Source: Crossaster papposus
Taxonomy: Eukaryota; Echinodermata; Asteroidea; Velatida; Solasteridae
DNA: 64,000 nucleotides
Direction: 5' to 3'
Assembly (NCBI GenBank): GCA_037893245.1
Contig: JBAIAA010000519.1
Span: 806,001-870,000 of the forward strand
Below the pieces are notes generated by a model. That model saw only the letters and a program-made list of their open reading frames with translations. It did no database searches and had not been told where the DNA came from. The position numbers and the translations under genes were made by a program. This document shows positions 4,065-42,153 of this stretch, in pieces; position 1 is the first letter of the stretch, and the number at the start of each line of letters is the position of its first letter.

Positions 4065-4134
4065 ATGGCGTACAGCAGCTTGTTTGGTGTACTGATGTGT
4101 TTGGCTGTGATAACATTAACAAGTGCAGCACACA
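4065..4134 (+). CDS. Exon 1 of secreted peptide gene (signal peptide)
   Basis: ATG to a GTAAGT donor; 23 codons plus one base (phase 1). It encodes MAYSSLFGVLMCLAVITL and the end of the signal peptide. The preceding 250 bp are relatively GC- and CpG-rich; no TATA box is evident. Confidence 0.75.
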
Positions 4135-7100
4135 GTAAGTACACATTGAATAATTCATTAATTATCGTGTTTATTTTTATCGTTTGAAGCAGTACAACGA
4201 TGCTTGACAACTGACCTTACGATTGTTTTTAGCTCTGTGAATGCTGTAATTTTCGATTTTGAACCAACTAATGGTTATTAAAAAACAAAAACGTAAGTTT
4301 TTGAAGACGCATTTTTTATCTTAAAAAAACATTCTTCAAAATGACAGCATGCCCGAAGGAATACTTTTAAGCGTGGTTTATATACCTTCGTTAGGTTTAT
4401 GCAGATTGTGCATATACTGCGCAGAGAGTATATATACGCGAAACCGCTGGCAAAGTTGAACTTGGTTGAACCGCCGGCAACGTTGAACTTGGTTCAACCG
4501 CCCATAAAGTAGAACTTGGTTCAACTTTGCCGATCGTTTGCGAGGTAGTTTGCGTTGTCAGCGACACTTTGCGTTTCTTCCGTCGATGTGGAAACAGATA
4601 ATTTTGAGTCGTATAAATACCAACCACAAACTTTTGAGCAATAATTAGGTTGGACAGTGGAAAAGCTGCAAAAAGGTTGTGACCCGCTCTGCAAAAATGA
4701 GTCTGATGTCGGAAAATACACTTTTAAGTAGGGCTGTTTAGTGTATCGGAGGTGACTTTTCTTGCAACAAAAAGTATTTTTGTTTTAAGGCATTTTGGTT
4801 TTTCAGAAACCTATATTTTCAGATCTGATCGATTGAAAATATTGTTTTGATCCCTAAACTTATTTTAATACAGGTTTTGTCATTCTCTTTCCATAGCATC
4901 TAATGAGGTATTACAATTGTAAATCTTCATTTCTTTTCAAAGCCATTTTGAATTATAACTGAGAAAAAGCAAATTTCCCAAAATTGTAAAAGACCAATGC
5001 GTTACACTACAGAGTTGGGCCATTATATCAAATGAAAGCTTATTTCCTGCTTTTTCTGACCAACTGTAAAATTGAAAAAAAACAACAATTTTTTTTTAAC
5101 ACATCAGACTCATTTTAAAGACTGTTTTACGGGTTCTTATTGATTAATCTAGCTTTCGTGTCCATTTTTGTTTCGCTGTGCTCTACGTCACAAGAGCGGC
5201 GTAAACAAACGTGGAGGGGGTTGGGCCGCAACCCCCCTCCAGGTATACACTTGGGCTTATATCGTCGCTATGTACAGTTGTTCTGATGTCTCTCGGTTAT
5301 TTTAACACCTAGTTTATACCAAAAACGTATCCCTTTGTCGCTATTGTCAATTTCCATATGGGTAGATTTTTACTGTTAAACTTTCCCATTACATTGATCG
5401 TGCTTAATGTACATGAGAGTGCACAAGGAGAGTGCCGACTTTAAATGTAGGATACACCATTGATAATTGCTTGAATTATCATGAATTGATATATTTGGGG
5501 GGTTGTATCTTATACGTGTAATAAATATAGTTTAACTGACCTGTCCGACGGGGACAATCATGGATGCCGAGAAAAGCACGAAAAACGGCGATTGTTTTCA
5601 ACCGGCGCCGAGCAGTTATTCTTATGTTATGTCTTTGTTTTTTCGCGATCACCGTCCGGAATAATTAGAGGATATTTAGCGCAATTATTTTGCTAGATGC
5701 CTAGAATAATTATTTACTTTCAAATGAGTAAGATATTTCTTATTAATTCGATGTCTGCAAATGGTGTATTCTACCTTTAAATGACCATATAACATCGAAA
5801 CATTTTACCGGGTTGGAGGGGCGGATCTAGCCGTTCGTTTGTTTGTTGTTGTTGTTGTTTGGTTTTTTTTGGTTTTTTTTTGGGGGGGAGGGAGAGGGGG
5901 GAGGGGGGGGGGGGGGGGGGGGTGGGGGTACATTTACCTACCATACTTGACTCCAGCGAGCGCGTAGCGCGAAGCCAATTACGGCGTAGGGTACATTTGG
6001 GATTCTATAGATGCTCTGTTGTGCAATCTGATGTGATTTGTTGCCACTTTCCTCTGAAATTTCGGAATTCATGTACAATGTACATTGATACTACCGATTA
6101 TTGAGAGTTTCGTGTTTTTGTTGGCAATAAAATTAAATTTCTCAGCAGCCTAAGGGAGGGAAGGGTGGGGAAGGGGGGGGGGGGGGGGGGGGGTGTTGCA
6201 ACCCCCATAACAACAACCCCCATCCCTCCTTAAATCCGCCACTAACACAACAGAATTTCAGATGTGGGGACAACATATCAGACCGCCAGTAGAACTCGAT
6301 TTGCTTCGTACACCTGTTGTCTCTATTTATCATTTAGGCTCGGTACTTTCATGCGCACATTCATGTATATTAGTCAATGCAGTAGGCATATATCCTGTGT
6401 TGGACAATGGACATGTTGCGACAACGGCAATCCCTTTTTTCATAAACTCGGTGTCAAATTAAAGGTAGGATACACTGTTTGCAGATATCGAAGAAAAAAA
6501 CTACCGAAATATTAAGGAATATCTTACTTATTTGAAAGTAAATAATAATTTGTAGGCATCCAGCTAAATAATTGCGCTGGATATCCTATATATATCCTAA
6601 ATATTTTATAAAACAAAATCAAGAATAACATAAGAACCACTGCCCGACGCCGGTTAAAAACTAGCGCCGTTTTTCTTGCTTTCCTCGGCATCCATGATTG
6701 TAAAACTTCAAACAGGTTAATTAAACGACATTTAATATAAAATACAACCCCCCTAAATCCACCCATTACCGATAATTCAAGCAATTACCAATGGTGCATC
6801 CTACCTTTATCCGCACAACAATGCAAATAACCTTTCGAGAGAAACATGGCAGAATTTCAAAAGTTCATTGCGACTATAAATCGCGTTTGCTTTATCAACA
6901 CGTTGGTTGATGAAGGGCTGTTGACACAATTTCTTCCCGAAATAAGGATGACAAAAAAATAAAAGAAATATAGATTTGTGAAAAGTCCAACTTGTTATTG
7001 ATCGTTTTCCTTTCACGTTTGTTTTCAACTCCAGTATGCGAAACCTGTAACAATCCCAAGTGCCAAAAGAACTGTTACGGCCACGCTCGTGAGTATATTG

Positions 7101-10100
7101 CCATTTAGCGTAATATAACACAATAAATGAACAAGCTTTAAGTGTACATCCCGGGGGTGGGGGTAGGCCTATACATTACCCAAACCTTTGACCAGGGTTC
7201 CGCCCCCTATTCACCCCCAAGTTTGCGTGGGTAGAAACAACTTAAAGGGATCGTATACCTTTGTTAATTACTCCAAAAATTAATTGCAATAAAAACTTAC
7301 TTGGTAAGAAGTACAGCAGCTTTGGATAGTATATTGCATTTTTAGAATCTTATCACTTTGAAGTACTGCGGTTATGGAAAACGATATCAATTTTTATCCC
7401 AAACAAATTGAATCTGAGAAGCGTTACTGCAGTGACGTTTCTCAGACTGTGTATTCCAATGCAGATTATTCTTCCTGCGTGGACATAACCGCTCCAGATT
7501 TTCGGCAATATCTCAAAATCGCTATACAACCTTTTGAAATGAATTTTTTACATGTTATTTTATTTATGGTATATATCTATAACTATATAGGATTGAAACA
7601 AACAGTGGGTTACAATTACCAAACGTATACGATCCCTTTTGTATTTAAAAATGTATTGAAAAACGTGGGAAAATAACTACAAAATCTTCAAATCAACTGC
7701 TTTGATGTAAGGTCTAGGAAGGTGAGTGCGCAATGTCGCATTAGATGCAAATTTGAATCATGAACGGTGTGTTTTGGTAGCCAGCCTTCCTTTCCCCCAT
7801 CCCACACCGGTTTTGCACCTCTGTGGAGTCATCGCTTTGTTCTCGTGTACAACTTTATTTTCCGGAACGTCGAGGGCTATTTTAAAAGGGTTCCTATTTA
7901 GGATCTTATCAGTGAGATTGGCTTGCTTTTCTTTGAACCAATTGTCAGAGGTGACAGTGTATTATGATAGGAAGTACGGTACCGGTACATTATCGTCAGT
8001 ATAACGCTGAACTCGCGTTTTTGTTTGCAGTTGGAGTAATGGGCAAGCGTACTCTTCAACAGTATCCCAACATTGCTAGCTATATTCAAGATCAGGTAAG
8101 CTAAGGCTCATTTTGGCTGTCTGACTGATTGACTGACTGCCTGCCTGACTGACCTACTGACTGGCTGTCTATTGCCTATCTGACCTACTGACTGACCTAC
8201 TGACTGACCTACTGACTGGCTGTCTACTGCCTGTCCGACCTACTGACTGACCTACTGAATGACATACTGACTGACCTACTGACTGGCTGTCTACTGCCTG
8301 CCTGGCTGACTGACTAACAGACTGACCTACTGACTGGCCTACTGACTGGCTGTCTACTGCCTGTCTGACCTACTGACTGACCTACTGACTGACCCACTGA
8401 CTGACCTACTAACTGACCTACTGACTGGCCTACTGACTGGCTGTCTACTGCCTGTCTGACCTACTGACTGACCTACTGACTGACCTACTGACTGGCCGTC
8501 TACTGCCTGCCTGACCTACTGACTGACCTACTGACTGACCTACTGACTGACCTACTGACCGACCTACTGACTGACCTACTGACTGACCTACTGACTGGCT
8601 GTCTACTGCCTGCCTGGCTGACTGACTAACAGACTGACCTACTGACTGACTTACTGACTGACCTACTGACTGGCTGTCTACTGCCTGTCTGACCTACTGA
8701 CTGACCCACTGACTGACCTACTAACTGACCTACTGACTGACCTACTGACTTGCTGTCTACTGCCTGTCTGACCTACTGACTGACCTACTGACTGACCTAC
8801 TGACTGGCTGTCTACTGCCTGTCTGACCTACTGACTGACCTACTGACTGACCTACTGACTGACCTACTGACCGACCTACTGACTGACCTACTGACTGACC
8901 TACTGACTGACCTACTGACTGGCTGTCTACTGCCTGTCTGACCTACTGACTGACCTACTGACTGACCTACTGACTGGCTGTCTACTGCCTGTCTGACCTA
9001 CTGACTGACCCACTGACTGACCTACTAACTGACCTACTGACTGATACTGACTGGCTGTCTACTGCCTGTCTGACCTACTGACTGACCTACTGACTGACCT
9101 ACTGACTGACCTACTGACTGACCTACTGACTGGCTGTCTACTGCCTGTCTGACTCACTGCCTGCCTGGCTGACTGACTGGCCGACTGACTGACCGACTGA
9201 CCGACTGACCGACTGACCGACTGACCGACTGACCGACTGACCGACTGACCACCTGCCTGACTGACTGTATACTGACTGTCTACTGACTGCTGACTGACTA
9301 ACACCCCTGTGTCTGTCGAAAGTTGCCGTCTCATAAATGTTTCCGCTGTGTGTCTTTAGATTCAATATCGGGATCCAGAAGCTCTAGTGCCACCTGCAAC
9401 GTGTGAGATGAGGGACATTTACCGCGCAGTTCCCCCATCCTGCTATGCCAAACTGGACTGGGTAAGCTCCTATGATATAATACACAACTACCACCAAACC
9501 TGAGCTTTCGAACTGTGTTGTAATGTCTTGACTATCTAGTGGTCGAATTTGAGCAAAATAGGCAAGAAATTGGCTGCGAAAAAAATTTACCAATTGAATT
9601 GCTCAACACACCTTTGCAACATATTTTCTTCATTGTGCAAATATTTGATATTCATGTTGGTCGTTGCTTGGTACGAGGAGTTATATTAATCAATGTAACT
9701 AACGTCCAGACATAGAGTTATATTATAGAAGCTAGAGGGCGCACTTATCACGTGACCCCGTTCCGATGCATGGACGGCATTTTGTAAGTGGGCAAAAAGC
9801 ACGTATAGTTGACATATAGCCTACGCATCTCTTTCGTGTCTTTGTCGTGCGCGGCAAAGATATGTCGTGTGTAAAAATGCCTAAGACTTGTGCTTTCTTT
9901 GGCTGCACATATCGGAACAACGTCAACAACACCAGAAACATCTCTTTTCACAAGTGAATACTTTCTGAGATAGGGCTGCCGGCAGTCGAGGTTGCTAACC
10001 ACCACGATCATCCTTACAATGTCACCTGTTTTTTTATTTATTTTAAAAAAACTTTCAATTTTGAGTTTAACCGTCGGTGGTGGTTAAACCAAGCAATGCC

Positions 10101-11835
10101 AAATCTGCCTGTCATATCATCGTGTAAGTAATACAACTACAGTCCACTGCTTCACGCCTTTGTTTTTCTGCGTCTGTTGACTTTATGACCTCAACACCTG
10201 ATAATACATTCTCCTTGGAAATCCTGGATCCGCCATTGACTCGGTGGAAAATAGGGATAAAACTATACTAAGTATACCCCAAGCAAATGTCACTTGAGAC
10301 TGACATTAAACAGACATTCATAAATACCTGGGACAGTTTAGGCATTCCTATTGGTCGAGAGCCCGTCACGTGGCCGGTATTAAACGGACGATAAAGACAT
10401 GGCTGGAAGTGTTTAAACCTAGCTGGAAACAACATTCCGTCCCCGGGGCTCACTTTATTTCCAACCCCGAACCGTACCTCGTCTCCAATAATAAGAGCGG
10501 GTAGTGTTGAGCGCGTACAGCTCGACACCTTGGGAACGAGGTTGCCAATGGCAGTAATAGTCTGGTTCACAGTAAATACGCTTTATTGCATGTATTGTGT
10601 AAAGAGCGACAGAGGCGGAAACATGTCATTTGACACAGACAGAATGGCGAAACACCGAAATTTACTTGCGACAATTTTCCGGGATTTTCAGGGCTTTTTG
10701 GGCTGAATTTTACAAAAAAAGGTATTTATGAATGGGAATAAATGTGTGTTCGGTCGGTATTAATCACTCTGTTTAATACCGCTTGGAGTCTGGGTGCTGA
10801 TAATTACCCTCGCCTTCGGCTCGGGTAATTATCAGCACCCAGACTCCAATCGGTATTAAACAGAGTGATTAAACCTCTCGAACACACATTTATTCCCTTA
10901 ATAAAGTTTACTGAATTACTGCCGCGGCCATTGAAGTGCATGGTACATCCGGGTAATTTACTACCGTGTTGCCCACTTACAAAATGGCGGACGGGTTACA
11001 GGGCGGCACGTCCGCGTAGCGCGCACAGTATATAGTGAGTGCGTACTTTAATGAGTAGATATGGGGTCCGCACACGTCAGCGCACCGACATGCAGTACAT
11101 GGATTTTTGGAGCAGGGCTTTTTTTCCCTCGACATTTTAGCAAATCACATTGCAACTTGTACGCACAGGTCAACAATTTGTGTCAACTTTTCTTAAATCA
11201 GTCAGTCAGTCGTGCATGTTTTCATACAATGTAAAATTAAGTTTGAGTTATCCTTTATATATATGGCCGTTTTATGGTTCAGATCTTTTATACAACCAAA
11301 GTATTATAGAAAACAAAATCAACCAAACGTAAAAGACTTACACGGTCTATTGCAAAATGACGTAGGGGCAAAGACCCATTGGTTATATGGTGGCTGCATA
11401 CATCGACGATACAACACAAGGACAATTATATTTATAAATACAGCCTCTCCCTGACCTATAGACAAAGCATTGGTCCCACATTTCGCTTGACTTGTCCAGA
11501 TAATTCCTGGAGAAAGACAATACATGTAGAAATGAAAGAAATGAAATTATACTGTGGTGAATATTTAGCCATGACAAATATTTAAACCGTGCGCTTTAAA
11601 CCTCAGTTTTGGTGAACGGTAAAATAATTTGATAAAAGCTTGACGCACGCTGTGTTGTGATTTTATTACATTTCTGTTTATAATTTTTAATTTTACACCT
11701 TACAAAGCGTTAAATCATAACAATCGTTCACAATAAGCCAGTTCGGTTTTGCAACTGAGCATGTGAACAACAAGATCATCTTTTTCTCTTTAGATTGTCC
11801 CAAGAAAAAACCCAAATCGTTCAAGTCTTTTTTAG
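4065..11835 (+). CDS. Secreted Cys-rich peptide precursor, possibly orexin-type (5 exons, 110 aa)
   Basis: Assembled by eye from splice sites: exons 4065-4134, 7035-7088, 8031-8095, 9360-9461 and 11794-11835, all GT-AG, total 333 nt, with phases 1,1,0,0 that agree at every junction. Residues 1-23 are a signal peptide (hydrophobic FGVLMCLAVITL, then SAAH). Four cysteines follow at once (ICETC, then KCQKNC), ending in GHALGVM-GKR, a glycine plus dibasic site typical of an amidated secreted peptide. The rest is a spacer with two more cysteines (PPATCEMRD…PPSCYAK) and a short tail ending SSLF. Placement right after the signal peptide, two possible disulfides and HALGVM-amide resemble orexin (mammalian end NHAAGILTM-amide), but Cys spacing differs (Cx2Cx4Cx3C). 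The ATG has a fair context (CCAATGG). The gene structure is well supported; the family name is a guess. It could be another small secreted Cys-rich protein. Confidence 0.72.
4175..4390. repeat. Dispersed repeat, family 2 (copy 2), in intron 1
   Basis: Shares ACGATGCTTGACAACTGA, TTAGCTCTGTGAATGCTGTA and CTTCAAAATGACAGCATGCC with 1195-1545; it sits just after the signal-peptide exon. Confidence 0.6.
4679..5116. mobile_element. MITE, family 3 (copy 1), in intron 1
   Basis: Left end GTGACCCGCTCTGCAAAAAT, then GAGTCTGATGT; right end ACATCAGACTCATTTT, lacking the outer 15 bp. The copy at 34867-35308 is in the opposite orientation and complete. Confidence 0.8.
5443..5779. mobile_element. MITE, family 4 (copy 1), in intron 1
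   Basis: Inverted ends of the type AAAGGTAGGATACACCATT / AATGGTGTATCCTACCTTT. The interior includes CATGGATGCCGAGAAAAG and a run like CGCAATTATTTTGCT. Six copies in the window. Confidence 0.85.
5869..5928. repeat. G homopolymer tract with T-rich flank
   Basis: TTTGGTTTTTTTTGGTT then long G runs broken by A and T. Confidence 0.93.
5928..6193. repeat. Dispersed repeat, family 5 (copy 1), ends in G tract
   Basis: AGCGAGCGCGTAGCGCGAAG, AATTACGGCGTAGGGTAC and TTTGTTGCCACTTTCCTC recur in inverse orientation at 44385-44521. A G tract occupies 6173-6193. Followed by CCTTAAATCCGCCACTAA. Confidence 0.7.
6461..6808. mobile_element. MITE, family 4 (copy 2), in intron 1
   Basis: Starts AAAGGTAGGATACACTGTTT and ends GTGCATCCTACCTTT; opposite orientation to 5443-5779. 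Confidence 0.85.
7035..7088 (+). CDS. Exon 2 of secreted peptide gene (four-cysteine segment)
   Basis: Acceptor TTTTCAACTCCAG, donor GTGAGT, 54 nt, phase 1 to phase 1. It encodes ICETCNNPKCQKNCYGHA, the cysteine core of the predicted peptide. Confidence 0.75.
7244..7639. mobile_element. MITE, family 6 (copy 1), in intron 2
   Basis: Inverted ends AAAGGGATCGTATACC… / …CGTATACGATCCCTTT; central palindrome GAGAAGCGTTACTGCAGTGA followed by CGTTTCTC. A copy is at 32.6-33.0 kb. Confidence 0.85.
8031..8095 (+). CDS. Exon 3 of secreted peptide gene (amidation site GKR)
   Basis: Acceptor TTTTTGTTTGCAG, donor GTAAGC, 65 nt, phase 1 to phase 0. It encodes LGVMGKRTLQQYPNI and then ASYIQDQ; GKR is the likely cleavage and amidation site. 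Confidence 0.75.
8108..9252. repeat. Minisatellite, CTACTGACTGAC-type units, in intron 3
   Basis: About 1.15 kb of 4-bp-based repeats organised in a 12-bp unit CTACTGACTGAC, punctuated by CTGGCTGTCTACTGCCTGTC about every 60-110 bp. That indicates a higher-order unit. It ends in a CGACTGAC run. Confidence 0.95.
9360..9461 (+). CDS. Exon 4 of secreted peptide gene (two-cysteine segment)
   Basis: Acceptor GTGTGTCTTTAG just downstream of the minisatellite, donor GTAAGC, 102 nt, phase 0 to phase 0. It encodes a 34-residue segment with IQYRDPEALVPPATCEMRD and later PPSCYAKLDW. Confidence 0.72.
9877..9957 (+). pseudogene. THAP-domain N-terminus (P-element-like transposase relic)
   Basis: 26 codons, MPKTCAFFGCTYRNNVNNTR then NISFHK and TGA. 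The C-x4-C zinc ligands and the ISFHK start of a THAP zinc finger are clear. A donor-like A|GTGAAT at the end suggests this was exon 1 of a transposase whose rest is lost. THAP domains bind DNA in P-element-type transposases and derived host proteins. Confidence 0.7.
10734..10897. mobile_element. Long-hairpin foldback element
   Basis: Arms of about 70 bp: GGGAATAAATGTGTGTTCG… / …CGAACACACATTTATTCCC, with loop CCCTCGCCTTCGGCTCGGG. Confidence 0.85.
11794..11835 (+). CDS. Exon 5 (terminal) of secreted peptide gene
   Basis: Acceptor TTTTTCTCTTTAG, 13 codons (IVPRKNPNRSSLF) and a TAG stop. A short basic tail. This is the least certain exon, because other acceptor-preceded frames lie downstream at 14.4-14.9 kb. 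Confidence 0.6.
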   Translation: MVPRKNPNRSSLF

Positions 11836-12120: not shown

Positions 12121-12126
12121 AATAAA
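12121..12126 (+). terminator. Candidate poly(A) signal of secreted peptide gene
   Basis: AATAAA about 285 nt after the TAG stop, in an A-rich stretch. It is the first such hexamer I noticed after the last exon. Confidence 0.4.
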
Positions 12127-13199: not shown

Positions 13200-13433
13200 C
13201 CAGTTCGCGCCGGGATTATTTTAACGTCGCCGAGCCGACGGGCGGGATTATTTTTAACGAAACTCGATCCGAAGCGTGTTCAGGCTGATAGTGCCGGGAA
13301 GCACACCCACGCATTTCCGGCCTTGCGCGCTGCTGACATACATTTCCGAACTTGAACTTGGCGTGTTTATGCGTCATCCGTTTTGAATTTGGGGAAATGT
13401 TTGCGTTTATATACGTCATCCGGCGCGAACTGG
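13200..13433. mobile_element. TTAA-flanked 234-bp element (copy 1)
   Basis: Ends CCAGTTCGCGCCGG / CCGGCGCGAACTGG, flanked by TTAA on both sides, as piggyBac-type transposition leaves. No coding capacity. Confidence 0.88.
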
Positions 13434-13439
13434 TTAAAA

Positions 13440-15280
13440 ACCACAACACAACACAATGAGGGGGGGGGGGGGGGTATCTCCGTCCCATTTTTCATTTTTG
13501 CTTCATGTGGCGGTTCTTGACACCGTAGTTAAACAACCGTCAACTTTTCAAAATGTAACCCAATAACCTAACATACATGTACATGTAATATAATTATGTA
13601 CAACTTACAGCGTATGGATTTAGTGGTACAGCCACTGAAGGGGAATAATTACCACTCTGAAGCTTTCATTCTGATGTTATTTTAACAAAAGCGAAATGTT
13701 CGACATATTTTCACAACAACCTTTTTGAATGACACTGCGCACTTAACAAAACCAGATAACCTAGTTTAGTATTCTGCTATTTACCTTCGTATTTTTCTTC
13801 TGATACGGCGAAGATAAGAACTATATCTTGATTAGAAAGCTAACAATACCTATACGTGCTAGCCTTTTAATTAAATTCATCGGGCATCGATTATGTGGCT
13901 TTCGTCGCGCAAACTCCCCCGTATCTATTCTAGCCCGATTCACTCAACCCCGAGGCAGTTTAGAGACTCCGTCTGAACTCTCCGAGCATCGGCTGCCGAC
14001 ACATATCTCAGGCACCTTGCCAAACACTCAACGTTTATATCAAGGCACGCTACACATGCAATCTACTGACCCGTGTATTGCACTATCGCTTATTACAAAT
14101 TAAAAAAACACCTCCTCTAAAAAGTAAGTCACGCAGTGGGTAATTCCCCCTATAACGGTTTTAAACGGACAATCATGATCTGCCGTTAATAAGGGAATTC
14201 TCTCCCCCGTGTATTGCACATCAGGGACCATTTAATTTGACCCTACAGCCGACTCTGGAAGTAGAGCCTCGATTTAAAAAACGGGTTCGGAAAAAAACAC
14301 GGCATTGCGTCATAAACGAGACAATCGCTCTTGACTTCTCATAGATCAAAATTACATGGAATGGTTTACTTTTGTACATTTTACATTCATCTCATTCCAT
14401 TTTGTTTCAGCGTGAGTTGTATTTAATTAATACCCTGCAAATTGTCAGAGTTATTGCAAACATTGAACCGAACCAGATGTCGGTATATTGCTGCTTTTTT
14501 GGTCCTATAAAAGGAATTCTTATTGATAATTTGCTGATCACCGAGAATCGCCCGTTCAGAAACTGTTACAGAAACAGTTACACGGTGAATGAACAATGTC
14601 TGTAATAAGATAAATTAATAATAATACTTTTTTTTCTTCCGTTCTGCCCGCGTCTATTCCACCATGTTCCTTTATAATTGGATTTATATTCTTTTGTATT
14701 TCCTTTTCCCCCTCCTCATTTTCCCCGATATTTCTTTCCTCCTACGGTTTTGTTTATAAATATATTTGTATCCTCCTTTTGGGTTGTCACTTGCAGTTGG
14801 TGGGCAAAGCAGCGGAGTCGCTTCTCGCTGAAGAGTAACAGGAAACGTGATACATCAACTACACGCTACGTGCTCAAATCGACGAACCCAGATTCGAAAC
14901 CTTGTCCTGAATAACGGAAGGAGAAACGGATTTAGCCTTCGTTTTAATGAAAATAATAATAGTTTCGTTTACAAGTCTATCGAAACGTCTTTGACGGAAT
15001 GGTGTTTCGGAATTTAGATTTTAGAATTTCGACATAGGTTTAGTCAAGATTCATTATTTACAAAACGTGAATGGATATTTTACATTGTACATTCGTGTGA
15101 CCTTATTTAAAAAAAAATAAAAATAAAATCCGACTCATTTTAAGAGTTTTACTATGATTATAATCTGTTTTTTTCTGAAATTTGTTTAGTGTTGCTCTAC
15201 ACGTGCTCTTGAAGATACAGTTTTTGTGTAGAGGAAAAAAACTATTTATGTATATTTTTTTCTTAGTATAATTTGACAAT
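13440..15280. other. No confirmed gene; G tract and candidate acceptor-led frames
   Basis: G tract at 13460-13474. Plus-strand frames at 14411-14605 (after TTTTGTTTCAG) and 14795-14911 (after GTTGTCACTTGCAG) could be alternative 3' exons, but no matching upstream exon was found. The rest is AT-rich and featureless. Confidence 0.35.
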
Positions 15281-38190: not shown

Positions 38191-38279
38191 GGTGTTAAAT
38201 TTAATCCCCTTGGTGTTATGAGAACTAACACACAATATCGATCCTCGGTCGTTATGTGGTTCACGACTGCGTGTGTTAA

Positions 38280-38513
38280 CCAGTTCGCGCCGGATGACGT
38301 ATATAAACGCAAACATTTCACCAAATTCAAAACGGATGACGCATAAACACGCCAAGTTCAAGTTCGGAAATGTATGTCAGCAGCGCGCAAGGCCGGAAAT
38401 GTGTGGGTGTGCTTCTCGGCACTATCAGCCTGAACCCGCTTCGGATCGAGTATCGTTAAAAATAATCCCGCCCGTCGGCTCGGCGATGTTAAAATAATCC
38501 CGGCGCGAACTGG
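38280..38513. mobile_element. TTAA-flanked 234-bp element (copy 2, inverted)
   Basis: Same ends and the same length as 13200-13433, opposite orientation; flanks TTAA and TTAC. Confidence 0.88.
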
Positions 38514-38758: not shown

Positions 38759-38992
38759 CCAGTTCGCGCCGGGATTATTTTAACATCGCCGAGCCGACGG
38801 GCGGGATTATTTTTAACGATACTCGATCCGAAGCGGGTTCAGGCTGATAGTGCCGAGAAGCACACCCACACATTTCCGGCCTTGCGCGCTGCTGACATAC
38901 ATTTCCGAACTTGAACTTGGCGTGTTTATGCGTCATCCGTTTTGAATTTGGTGAAATGTTTGCGTTTATATACGTCATCCGGCGCGAACTGG
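38759..38992. mobile_element. TTAA-flanked 234-bp element (copy 3)
   Basis: Same ends and length, orientation as copy 1, 245 bp from copy 2; flanks TTAA and TTAC. Confidence 0.88.
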
Positions 38993-40042
38993 TTACGGAG
39001 CCATCTCCGAACCGTCTGATGTATAATGACATGTTAATTTATGCGATTTTTTATTTATTTTTTAATTTATTTATTTTATTACACTTTTTTACTTACTGAC
39101 AAATAAGAACATACAGGATACACAGTATCAAAATTATAAAGACATCCATGAAAGACAAAAAATATTATACAATTTTTTTTTTTAATTTACGAAGTGAATA
39201 ACTAAAACAACGGAACAGGTGACTAGCACCTCCACAGAGCCATCCTACCACAAAACACTGTGACGTCATTTAGAGCAGAAATCGGGACAAAGCTACTGAT
39301 TGGCCAATTTGGCTGTCATGTTTTTGTAAGATAGTACATGTAACAGGTGACGGAAGACGCGATATCGCGAATGAAAGCTTCTGCTAAATGGACAGAATCT
39401 TGAGGTCAAGATGCAGTCTTGCTTGCAAAATTAATCACCGAATCTGCTCGCATATCGCATAGACGCTCGTCCAACCAGCGGATATTCCATAGACCAGCGT
39501 TGGAATGCGATCTATTTATTTCTCTGTACGAGGATATACTGTGATGAAGTTCCCATTTTGAGAAAGTGGTGGTTTAAATCGTAGATAGTAAATGGATTGT
39601 CGGCCAGAATTGTCTTTAAGCGGACACTTCTGAATTTCAAGAATATACAGGGTATATTGTCCAATTAGTATGCACGATTGTCGTTTACTTGTTTTAGCGT
39701 TCATGTTGTCAACATTGTGAAAACGAATGCCGCCACATGAATAGCTTCCTCACCATGGGTATAGTTGAGGGAAGACTTTTAACAATCGAATTTTTGCCCT
39801 GTAACAATAGGCAGTCGTAGGTGGACTAAGGAATCGTCATTTGATATCCAGACCGAAGTACTCAAAACCCTACAGAGGGAAAGCTTCGTTTTACGGACGA
39901 CCCGTCTCCCTGCGGGCCCGCTTTAATGGAACACTCCGCCCTCCCAAAACGACCCTTCACTTGTCTTGTTGACGGTTGCAGACAAGCAACGGTACGCCGT
40001 AATAACGTGATTTTACCAGGCGACACACAGTTAGACGACGTT
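38993..40042. other. No gene recognised; AT-rich then LINE flank
   Basis: 39035-39085 is a TTTATTT-rich tract. No motifs or splice-consistent frames before the LINE. Confidence 0.4.
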
Positions 40043-42153
40043 TAGTCGACGTTTAGTCGACGTGCAGAGCGGAAATGGAGGCTATCTGCACTTGAGGTAG
40101 ATCTGAAAGCCTTTAAGTTTCAGAGGAATAAAACTACGTACATTATGAATAAAACACGTTGTGAATTTTATACTGATTTTATTGATAATAATTGTGTTAA
40201 AAATCAACGGAAACTGTTTTCAGCTGTGAAGCAACTGCTAAATCAGGATTCGAACACGTTATTTCCACAGAATTGTAATAAGCTCAATCTTGCCAATCAA
40301 ATTGGGTCTTATTTTGTTAAAAAGATCACTGATATACGTGTTGGGTTAGATACATTGGGAAATTCAGTTACTGTATTACCTGATTCAATGCCTGTTAAGA
40401 TTTCAACGAATAATGCATTCCTTCATGAATTCGAGGCACTGGGCGAAGATTCAGTGAGAAAACTTGTGTTAAAGGCGCCCAGTAAGTCTTGCATCTTTGA
40501 CCCGGTGCCAACGTTTATTGTGAAGGACTGCATTAATGAACTCTTACCATCGTTAACATCACTTATTAACATGTCTCTGCAGAGTGGAATGGTTCCTTGT
40601 TCCTGGAAGGAAGCCCTTGTAGTTCCAAAATTGAAACAGCCTGGTTTAGACACGGGATTTGCGAATTTCCGTCCTATTTCTAATCTGCAGTTTGTGTCCA
40701 AGCTAGTTGAACGAGCCGTTACTGATCAACTTTATTCATATCTGGTAAAAAATGAGTATCTGCCTAGCAATCAATCAGCTTATCGTCCGGGGCACAGTAC
40801 TGAAACTGCATTGTTGCGAATTAAGAATGATATTCTTATGAATATGGACAAACAATGTGTAACTCTACTTGTGCTATTAGATCTAAGCGCAGCTTTTGAT
40901 ACTGTGGATTATGGTATATTACTGGGTCGGTTACGCAATAACTTTGGAATAACTGGAACAGTGTACAATTGGTTTGAATCATATTTATTGGGTAGATCTC
41001 AACGTGTATCAGTTGATGGGGTATTATCAGATAGTTTCCATCTTGAATCTGGTGTCCCACAAGGTAGTTGTCTTGGTCCTTTATTGTTCTCGTTGTATTC
41101 TAGCGAGCTATTTAAGGTCACAGAGAAACATCCTCTACATGTTCATTCATATGCGGACGATACACAACTCTATTTATCTTTTAAACCCAAAGCTGGTACA
41201 AATGAGTCTACTGCTAAGTGTGCCATTGAAAATTGTATCACTGAAATTCAACAATGGATGACGGTAAATAAACTCAAGCTCAATACTGGAAAAACTGAAT
41301 TTCTTATTTTAGGTACAAAGAAACAGCTGGAAAAGGTAACTATGTCTCATTTAAAAGTTGGCAATACTGTTGTTCGTGCGTCATCTGGTGCTATTCGTAA
41401 CCTTGGGGTTTGGTTTGATTCTGAACTTAAATTGGGGTATCATGTAGGTAAAATAAGTAGTTCTGCGTTTTACCACCTGTATAATTTGCGTAGGATCAGG
41501 AAGTTTTTAACTCGACAGTCTATAGAGTCTTTGGTGCATGCCTTTATAACAAGCAAACTAGATTATTGTAATAGTTTACTGTATGGTCTTTCCAGTACAC
41601 ACATCGGTAAATTACAAAGAATTCAAAATACTGCAGCTCGCCTTGTAACCGGTTCACCACGTACATGTCACATCACGCCAGTTCTTCATCTCCTTCATTG
41701 GTTACCAGTTGTATATCGTATTCAGTTTAAAATTTTGATTTTAACATTTAAATGTTTATATGGAACAGCTCCGGAGTATCTCTGTGACCTGGTGTCTGTT
41801 ATTCGCCAAAACAGATATAGTCTTCGTTCAATGAATAGTGTGTTACTGACTCCGGGGAGTGCCAAATGTAAAGTTTCACTAGGTGATTGTGCTTTTCAGA
41901 CAGCTGCCCCTAAACTATGGAACAAACTTCCAGGTCACATTAGGAATCTTAGGAGTCTAGATAAGTTTAAAACTGAAGTTAAAACATATCTTTTTAAACT
42001 AGCTTTTGATTTTGAATCATGATTCTTATTTTTAACTAAGTAATAGTATGGTGTAGTTAATTTTGTTTTATGTATAATGTACAGCGCACATGAACATATT
42101 TTTATGGAATGCGCGCTATATAAATGTAATTATTATTATTATTATTATTATTA
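40043..42153 (+). mobile_element. 5'-truncated L2/CR1-type LINE, 3' (ATT)n tail
   Basis: The reverse-transcriptase frame is open from about 40052, with a first ATG at 40145, to TGA at 42020-42022 (625 codons). Motifs: NFRPISNL, SAYRPGHSTETALL, LDLSAAFDTVDY, SGVPQGSCLGPLLFSLY, the catalytic HVHSYADDTQLYLSF, and a C-terminal region with LNTGKTEFLILG and AAPKLWNKLP. The endonuclease domain is absent. An in-frame TAG near 40049 interrupts the sequence upstream (QLDDV*STFSRRAERKWR), so the 5' end decayed or was truncated. The 3' end is GCGCTATATAAATGTAATTA followed by ATT repeats to 42153, typical of L2/CR1-like elements. Confidence 0.88.
40145..42022 (+). CDS. LINE reverse transcriptase (625 aa, EN domain missing)
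   Basis: Non-LTR reverse transcriptase that would copy element RNA at a nicked target. RT blocks occur in the usual order, with YADD at about residue 338. The thumb and C-terminal conserved domain end in TYLFKLAF. The frame has no stops or frameshifts, which suggests a fairly young insertion. It cannot be autonomous as seen, because the endonuclease part is missing. Confidence 0.88.
   Translation: MNKTRCEFYTDFIDNNCVKNQRKLFSAVKQLLNQDSNTLFPQNCNKLNLANQIGSYFVKKITDIRVGLDTLGNSVTVLPDSMPVKISTNNAFLHEFEALGEDSVRKLVLKAPSKSCIFDPVPTFIVKDCINELLPSLTSLINMSLQSGMVPCSWKEALVVPKLKQPGLDTGFANFRPISNLQFVSKLVERAVTDQLYSYLVKNEYLPSNQSAYRPGHSTETALLRIKNDILMNMDKQCVTLLVLLDLSAAFDTVDYGILLGRLRNNFGITGTVYNWFESYLLGRSQRVSVDGVLSDSFHLESGVPQGSCLGPLLFSLYSSELFKVTEKHPLHVHSYADDTQLYLSFKPKAGTNESTAKCAIENCITEIQQWMTVNKLKLNTGKTEFLILGTKKQLEKVTMSHLKVGNTVVRASSGAIRNLGVWFDSELKLGYHVGKISSSAFYHLYNLRRIRKFLTRQSIESLVHAFITSKLDYCNSLLYGLSSTHIGKLQRIQNTAARLVTGSPRTCHITPVLHLLHWLPVVYRIQFKILILTFKCLYGTAPEYLCDLVSVIRQNRYSLRSMNSVLLTPGSAKCKVSLGDCAFQTAAPKLWNKLPGHIRNLRSLDKFKTEVKTYLFKLAFDFES

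What the first reader, a model, noticed from the sequence alone, without database searches (positions are those of the whole stretch)
4065..11835. Undescribed secreted peptide precursor with an orexin-like end
Five short exons fit together in phase into a 110-residue precursor. It has a signal peptide, then four cysteines, then HALGVM followed by GKR. Mature orexins also follow the signal peptide directly, carry two disulfides near the N-terminus and end in an amidated HAAGIL(T)L/M. Here the linker is shorter and the Cys spacing is Cx2Cx4Cx3C, so this would be a very divergent member or an independent family. The exon structure is seen in sequence; the family link is inference.
Basis: partly seen in the sequence, partly recalled or inferred. 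Interest (0 to 1): 0.75.

Follow-up and report, generated by a model that had tools for sequence, protein, structure and literature searches.

The report
Sea star four-cysteine amidated neuropeptide gene
A sea star genome holds a convincing gene for a small secreted signalling peptide, predicted to carry two disulfide bridges and an amidated end; it is not the sea star's orexin, and its gene layout instead resembles the bombesin/CCHamide/endothelin group of peptide hormones.

Summary
In a splice-aware scan it is the only such chain in the window on either strand; 0 of 3481 shuffled windows and 0 of four 100-kb strand scans of flanking DNA gave one. The mitochondrial contig looks echinoderm, with the inverted rRNA/ND block I recall from sea stars. 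The orexin reading is not supported: the genome holds a separate orexin-type gene (six Cys, one coding exon), and ambulacrarian orexins are reported with six Cys. Gene architecture fits better elsewhere. A phase-1 intron lies inside the peptide, four codons before the amidation glycine, followed by two phase-0 introns: the order reported for echinoderm bombesin-type genes. Single copy next to the signal peptide and predicted amidation fit the bombesin/CCHamide/endothelin group. The genome also holds several bombesin-receptor-like GPCRs; in Asterias most such receptors lack ligands. Sequence similarity alone proves nothing: no library matched, tail tests are weak, and the Cys frame fits none of the three families. 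Expression, conservation and receptor are untested. Probably a new variant of a known kind.

The parts
4065..4134 (+). coding exon 1: signal peptide MAYSSLFGVLMCLAVITLTSA(A) and H23; ends phase 1
   Evidence: first in-frame ATG after a stop; donor GTAAGT
4135..7034 (+). intron 1, phase 1, between signal peptide and Cys module
7035..7088 (+). coding exon 2 (54 nt, phase 1-1): ICETCNNPKCQKNCYGHA, the four-Cys module
   Evidence: Cys gaps 2,4,3
7089..8030 (+). intron 2, phase 1, INSIDE the peptide, in the codon of L42, four codons before the amidation glycine
8031..8095 (+). coding exon 3: (L)GVM-G-KR then TLQQYPNIASYIQDQ; ends phase 0
8042..8050 (+). GKR: amidation glycine 46 and dibasic cleavage site 47-48
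8096..9359 (+). intron 3, phase 0; mostly a CTGA-type tandem array 8117-9299
9360..9461 (+). coding exon 4: IQYRDPEALVPPATCEMRDIYRAVPPSCYAKLDW, C-terminal propeptide with two Cys; ends phase 0
   Evidence: only internal exon meeting criteria
9462..11793 (+). intron 4, phase 0
11794..11835 (+). coding exon 5: IVPRKNPNRSSLF and stop; least certain exon
   Evidence: best of 12 acceptors, not unique
12121..12126 (+). candidate polyadenylation signal AATAAA

Best explanation
This is a sea star neuropeptide gene. The signal peptide is removed, the prohormone is cut after KR47-48, the basic residues are trimmed, glycine 46 becomes a C-terminal amide, and four Cys within 13 residues close two disulfides, giving (A)HICETCNNPKCQKNCYGHALGVM-NH2 (23 or 24 residues). 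Most likely it belongs with, or works like, the bombesin/CCHamide/endothelin ligand group: the disulfide-held head presents the amidated YGHALGVM tail to a rhodopsin-type GPCR, probably one of the bombesin-receptor-like orphans that sea stars carry. Shown: the exon structure in the DNA, intron phases, Cys frame, cleavage and amidation motifs, and the presence of bombesin-receptor-like genes in this genome. Inferred: expression, processing, disulfide pairing, family membership, receptor and effect (myoactivity or feeding control by analogy with ArBN).
For: Exon model and rarity. Intron phases 1,1,0,0: leaving out the intron after the signal peptide, the order 1 (inside peptide), 0, 0 is the plan reported for echinoderm bombesin-type genes; chordate ones typically have phase 1 inside the peptide then phase 0 (PMC12002301 sections 4 and 17). 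Single copy right after the signal peptide with amidated C-terminus is shared by EP/CCHamide and NMB/GRP; endothelins have four Cys; the terminal residue of EP/CCHamides varies and is Met, Phe or Leu in some ecdysozoans (PMC6617912 passages). The last two Cys are spaced CxxxC, as I recall for endothelins. Bombesin-receptor-like GPCRs are present: 4 of 4 loci tested (of 20 fetched, of 49 listed) match GRPR, NMBR or BRS3 best among solved structures. In Asterias 11 such proteins were found; ArBN is the ligand of BNR1 and did not act on BNR2 or BNR3 (PMC12002301).
Against: No sequence-level homology: Pfam, NCBIfam and PDB-sequence searches gave 0 hits. Tail permutation tests against bombesin (0.126), ranatensin (0.126), phyllolitorin (0.22), Branchiostoma GRP (0.18), ArBN (0.11), CCHa2 (0.20) and GGNG-1 (0.56) are not significant; CCHa1 (0.031) does not stand after 11 comparisons. 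Four Cys fits neither CCHamide (two) nor bombesin (none), and endothelins are not amidated and use CxCx7CxxxC (spacing recalled). The extra phase-1 intron before the Cys module is not in the published bombesin plan. I could not locate this genome's bombesin gene (nothing), so intron positions were not compared directly; the exact codon in human GRP is recalled. Agreement of intron phases could be chance.
Confidence: 0.43

Rival explanations
1. A real, secreted, amidated neuropeptide of an independent or echinoderm-restricted family, unrelated to bombesin/CCHamide/endothelin, whose intron layout agrees by chance.
For: No family match; besides its own exons the only genome match at E<=10 (5 candidates scored) was 28% identical at E 2.5 with a stop inside. 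Echinoderms have orphan Cys-containing precursors, including crinoid PCNP6 and PCNP7, each an amidated four-Cys peptide with no known homologue (PMC9793003 section 36).
Against: Phase-1 intron inside the peptide followed by two phase-0 introns, and a single amidated copy next to the signal peptide, match the bombesin-type plan.
Confidence: 0.34
2. A divergent orexin-type peptide, as first proposed.
For: HALGV-M resembles HAAGIL(T)M (p 0.044 against recalled OX-B); the middle Cys gap of 4 equals that of orexin-A (recalled).
Against: A separate orexin-type gene with six Cys and a single coding exon is in this genome; echinoderm and hemichordate orexins are reported with six Cys; AjOXP1 and AjOXP2 have 1 and 3 coding exons against 5 here; Pfam gave no family for the precursor. 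The genome search with Pfam Orexin rang nowhere, controls included, so it says nothing. A second orexin gene of this genome was not found.
Confidence: 0.07
3. A secreted Cys-rich defence or epithelial peptide rather than a neuropeptide; no GPCR is involved.
For: Small, secreted, Cys-rich, with a further Cys pair in the C-terminal part.
Against: GKR directly after a short peptide, single copy behind a signal peptide, are usual prohormone marks; not strongly cationic by eye.
Confidence: 0.08
4. The exon model is partly or wholly wrong (for example exon 5, or a pseudogene).
For: No transcript evidence; exon 5 is one of 12 possible terminal acceptors; exon 4 has the weakest acceptor of the four; intron 3 is almost wholly a tandem array.
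Against: 0 of 3481 shuffles and 0 of four 100-kb strand scans give such a chain; no frameshift or stop.
Confidence: 0.08

Closest known systems
Echinoderm bombesin-type precursors (ArBNP of Asterias rubens; PMC12002301)
   Same: Single amidated peptide right after the signal peptide; phase-1 intron inside the peptide; two further phase-0 introns; precursor about 100 residues (102 in Asterias).
   Different: ArBN (EPRRNYNRVFGPTY-NH2) has no Cys; here four Cys, a Gly-Val-Met end and an extra phase-1 intron after the signal peptide.
EP/CCHamide peptides of protostomes and the brittle-star CCHamide-like precursors 1 and 2 (Arnp25 group; PMC6617912, PMC5627052)
   Same: Amidated, Cys-containing, single copy next to the signal peptide; a Gly close before the terminal residue; YGH motif as in insect CCHamides (recalled).
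   Different: They have two Cys, the second in the tail; here four, and none in the last eight residues.
Vertebrate endothelins
   Same: Four Cys, last pair CxxxC (recalled), hydrophobic tail after the last Cys (8 residues here, 6 recalled).
   Different: Endothelins are not amidated, use CxCx7CxxxC and lie inside a larger prohormone (recalled).
Orexins, including the orexin-type gene of this genome (L012)
   Same: Disulfide-rich, amidated, directly after the signal peptide.
   Different: Ambulacrarian orexins have six Cys; L012 has CCx5Cx5CxCx6C, a predicted ILNS-amide end and a single coding exon.
Crinoid PCNP6 and PCNP7 (PMC9793003)
   Same: Amidated four-Cys putative neuropeptides in echinoderms.
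   Different: Their sequences are in figures not held here; relation could not be tested.

Membership tests
Orexin-type (ambulacrarian) | six Cys beginning CC (CKC in a crinoid) | tested here: not met
   four Cys, CxxCx4CxxxC; rule
Orexin-type (ambulacrarian) | being the species' recognisable orexin gene | tested here: not met
   a separate six-Cys orexin-type gene exists at L012:1420-1740; the second one known in eleutherozoans was not found
Orexin-type (chordate) | HAAGIL(T)L/M-amide tail with CCx4CxC head (recalled) | tested here: not met
   HALGVM tail, Cys gaps 2,4,3; permutation p 0.044 and 0.082
Bombesin-type (GRP/NMB/ArBN) | phase-1 intron interrupting the peptide-coding sequence | tested here: met
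   intron 7089-8030, phase 1, in codon L42; rule
Bombesin-type (GRP/NMB/ArBN) | downstream phase-0 intron(s); two in echinoderms | tested here: met
   introns 3 and 4 are phase 0; intron 4 rests on the less certain exon 5
Bombesin-type (GRP/NMB/ArBN) | conserved peptide motif (PRxN, GxLM-amide or RIFGPxx-amide) | tested here: not met
   tail YGHALGVM; permutation p 0.11-0.22
Bombesin-type (GRP/NMB/ArBN) | first coding intron is the one inside the peptide | tested here: not met
   extra phase-1 intron 4135-7034; rule
Bombesin-type (GRP/NMB/ArBN) | activates a BNR-type receptor | not testable with these tools
   candidate receptors listed
EP/CCHamide | two Cys in the peptide | tested here: not met
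   four Cys; rule
EP/CCHamide | single amidated copy directly after the signal peptide | tested here: met
   sequence, (amidation predicted from GKR)
Endothelin | four Cys CxCx7CxxxC, not amidated (spacing recalled) | tested here: not met
   CxxCx4CxxxC with amidation glycine
Any of these families | profile or sequence match | tested here: not met
   0 hits in Pfam, NCBIfam (a prokaryote-oriented library) and PDB sequences at E<=10

The most novel reading that the evidence does not exclude
A four-Cys, amidated ligand of the bombesin/CCHamide/endothelin clade: the head of an endothelin on the gene plan and amidated end of a bombesin, acting on one of the orphan BNR2-11-type receptors of sea stars. 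It would link three ligand families whose kinship rests mainly on their receptors.
Probability: 0.27. Interest if true: 0.75.

Novelty: new variant of a known kind. Interest (0 to 1): 0.5.

Why it matters
Bombesin-, CCHamide- and endothelin-type peptides share hardly any sequence; their kinship rests mainly on receptors (PMC6617912). In Asterias, 10 of 11 bombesin-receptor-like proteins have no known ligand (PMC12002301). A four-Cys amidated peptide on a bombesin-type gene plan is a concrete candidate that can be synthesised and tested on a short list of receptors, and it could show what the common ancestral peptide looked like.

Tried and rejected
Orexin membership: rejected on the separate six-Cys orexin-type gene. 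A second orexin gene was sought with the L012 protein and not found. Bombesin gene of this genome: the ArBN peptide as protein query gave nothing (17 residues, split by an intron in the known genes, so uninformative) and a degenerate exon-end pattern gave 0 hits; not located. Pfam Orexin against the genome rang nowhere, controls included. Arnp21 (102 residues, two amidated peptides, no Cys mentioned) and Arnp25 (two Cys) of Asterias were considered as the same gene and rejected on their published descriptions. Literature: a search for HALGVM, GHALGVM, CYGHALG and NCYGHA found 0 papers. Of the Asterias survey PMC4772807 I read sections 26 and 34 and the six 'four cysteine' passages and saw no amidated four-Cys single-chain peptide; figures and supplements are not held, so this is not proof of absence. 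Other paper searches (listings). Passages only; whole sections: (of section 4, part 1 of 4). Ten window ORFs against Pfam: one reverse transcriptase, otherwise nothing over cut-off. Structure prediction of the spliced precursor was not possible. Receptors: only 4 of the 20 fetched loci were tested; L041 and L042, which score above L043 and L044 against GRPR, were not.

Full report
What is there. The five exons join exactly as stated to MAYSSLFGVLMCLAVITLTSAAHICETCNNPKCQKNCYGHALGVMGKRTLQQYPNIASYIQDQIQYRDPEALVPPATCEMRDIYRAVPPSCYAKLDWIVPRKNPNRSSLF. All four introns are GT-AG, phases 1, 1, 0, 0, and all four donors have the form GTRAGY. Simple weight matrices put the donors in the top 0.05-2.9% and the acceptors in the top 0.4-6.3% of the window's sites. 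A candidate polyadenylation signal follows at 12121.

Chance. I scanned for a hydrophobic first exon joined through at most two further exons to a four-Cys stretch and G[KR][KR], with thresholds set at this gene's weakest sites. The window gave this single chain on the + strand and none on the - strand; 3481 Markov-1 shuffles (218.6 Mb) gave none; four 100-kb strand scans of the flanking contig gave none. Thresholds were chosen after the fact, so the rarity is real but not an exact probability. Exon 4 is unique under the criteria, exon 5 is not.

Which animal. The genome (1.02 Gb, 1841 contigs) has a mitochondrial contig of 16,330 bases. Reading its open frames by eye and its tRNAs with ARAGORN, the order COI-R-ND4L-COII-K-ATP6-COIII is that of echinoderms as I recall it; 16S rRNA, ND2 and ND1 (by eye) lie on the opposite strand, the inversion I recall for sea stars. 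No named reference was compared, so 'sea star' rests on recalled gene orders.

Not the orexin. With the sea cucumber orexin AjOX1 (sequence from PMC6586643) I found an orexin-type precursor in this genome: L012:1420-1740, 106 residues, predicted peptide ENSCCAKTYKCQLRSDCRCLMREILCRDPSKGILNS-amide, six Cys, the whole coding sequence in one exon behind an acceptor-like site. The match itself is weak (E 0.32); I accept it on the Cys frame, hydrophobic start and GKR. Echinoderm and hemichordate orexins are reported with six Cys in the surveys read. A second orexin gene, known in other eleutherozoans, was not found.

What it looks like instead. Huang et al. 2025 (PMC12002301; abstract, sections 3, 9, 17, 19, 22 and part 1 of 4 of section 4 read) use gene structure to tie echinoderm to chordate bombesin-type genes: a phase-1 intron inside the peptide, then phase-0 introns, two in echinoderms. 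The present gene shows that order, plus one extra phase-1 intron that makes the Cys module a symmetrical 54-nt exon. The intron lies in the codon four before the amidation glycine; I recall the same offset for human GRP but could not check it. PMC6617912 (passages) lists the shared marks of EP/CCHamide and GRP/NMB peptides: single amidated copy after the signal peptide; endothelins add four Cys. Brittle-star CCHamide-like peptides and Arnp25 show that CCHamide-like ligands are reported in echinoderms (PMC5627052 section 7).

Results against. No library knows the protein. C-terminal permutation tests on the tail CYGHALGVM, 11 comparisons: CCHa1 0.031, OX-B 0.044, AjOX1 0.076, OX-A 0.082, ArBN 0.11, bombesin 0.126, ranatensin 0.126, Branchiostoma GRP 0.18, CCHa2 0.20, phyllolitorin 0.22, GGNG-1 0.56; none stands after correction. 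The four-Cys frame meets the definition of neither bombesin, CCHamide nor endothelin. Hence 'works like' is favoured at moderate confidence and membership is not claimed.

Receptors. A search with GRPR gave 49 loci at E<=1e-15, many of which will be other peptide receptors. I fetched 20 and tested four against solved structures; all four match bombesin-family receptors best: L040, probably spliced, 41% identical to GRPR over the match (E 1.6e-47 to BRS3), L034, representing six near-identical copies (1.4e-52 to NMBR), L043 (9.4e-41 to BRS3) and L044 (1.8e-31 to GRPR). That makes nine fetched loci of this kind. L041 and L042 rank higher than L043 and L044 and were not tested. So the receptor side of such a system is present, as in Asterias, where BNR2-11 lack ligands. 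This does not show that the peptide acts on them.

Verdict. A very probably real secreted peptide gene that I did not find described (and the survey sections named above); orexin no; bombesin/CCHamide/endothelin-like most likely; independent family second.

Noticed in passing
L034, L035, L036, L037, L038, L039 (G000 C145 twice, C22, C251, C123, C769): Six intact, single-exon 388-aa open frames of a bombesin-receptor-like GPCR, 97-99% identical in protein and 98.7-99.5% in DNA over 1.34-1.40 kb, on five contigs. Two copies compared further share 3.9 kb at 97.4%, with a sharp upstream edge, up to about the end of what was fetched: a recent dispersed repeat carrying a GPCR. pN/pS between copies ranges 0.09-1.67 on few changes.
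   Followed up: partly
L040 (G000 C301:541101-542400): Bombesin-receptor-like gene, 41% to GRPR, open frame ending at a GTGAGT donor-like site after CWIPHFIYR (the one TGA listed); candidate BNR1 orthologue.
   Followed up: partly
L012:1420-1740 (G000 C710): Orexin-type precursor of this genome with six Cys in a single coding exon.
   Followed up: yes
window 8117-9299: Intron 3 is nearly filled by a 1.2-kb CTGA-type tandem array starting about 20 bases behind exon 3 and ending about 60 before exon 4.
   Followed up: no
window 40046-42019: Long open frame with a reverse transcriptase domain (Pfam RVT_1, E 6e-30), a non-LTR-type retroelement by look.
   Followed up: no
window 13219-13491 (-), 38222-38494 (+), 38778-39038 (-): Nearly the same open-frame stretch (TSSRRMTYINANISPNSKRMTHKHAKFKFGNVC...) occurs three times on both strands: a dispersed repeat.
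   Followed up: no
G000 C8 (5.3 Mb), L006, L008, L009: Contig with cytochrome oxidase subunit I matches free of stops under the standard code; looks like a co-assembled bacterial chromosome. Not tested further.
   Followed up: no
G000 C499:1622702-1623664 and 1434114-1435076; C459:1576713-1651795: Further GRPR-like or related GPCR matches occur as a pair on C499 and as a cluster of six on C459.
   Followed up: no
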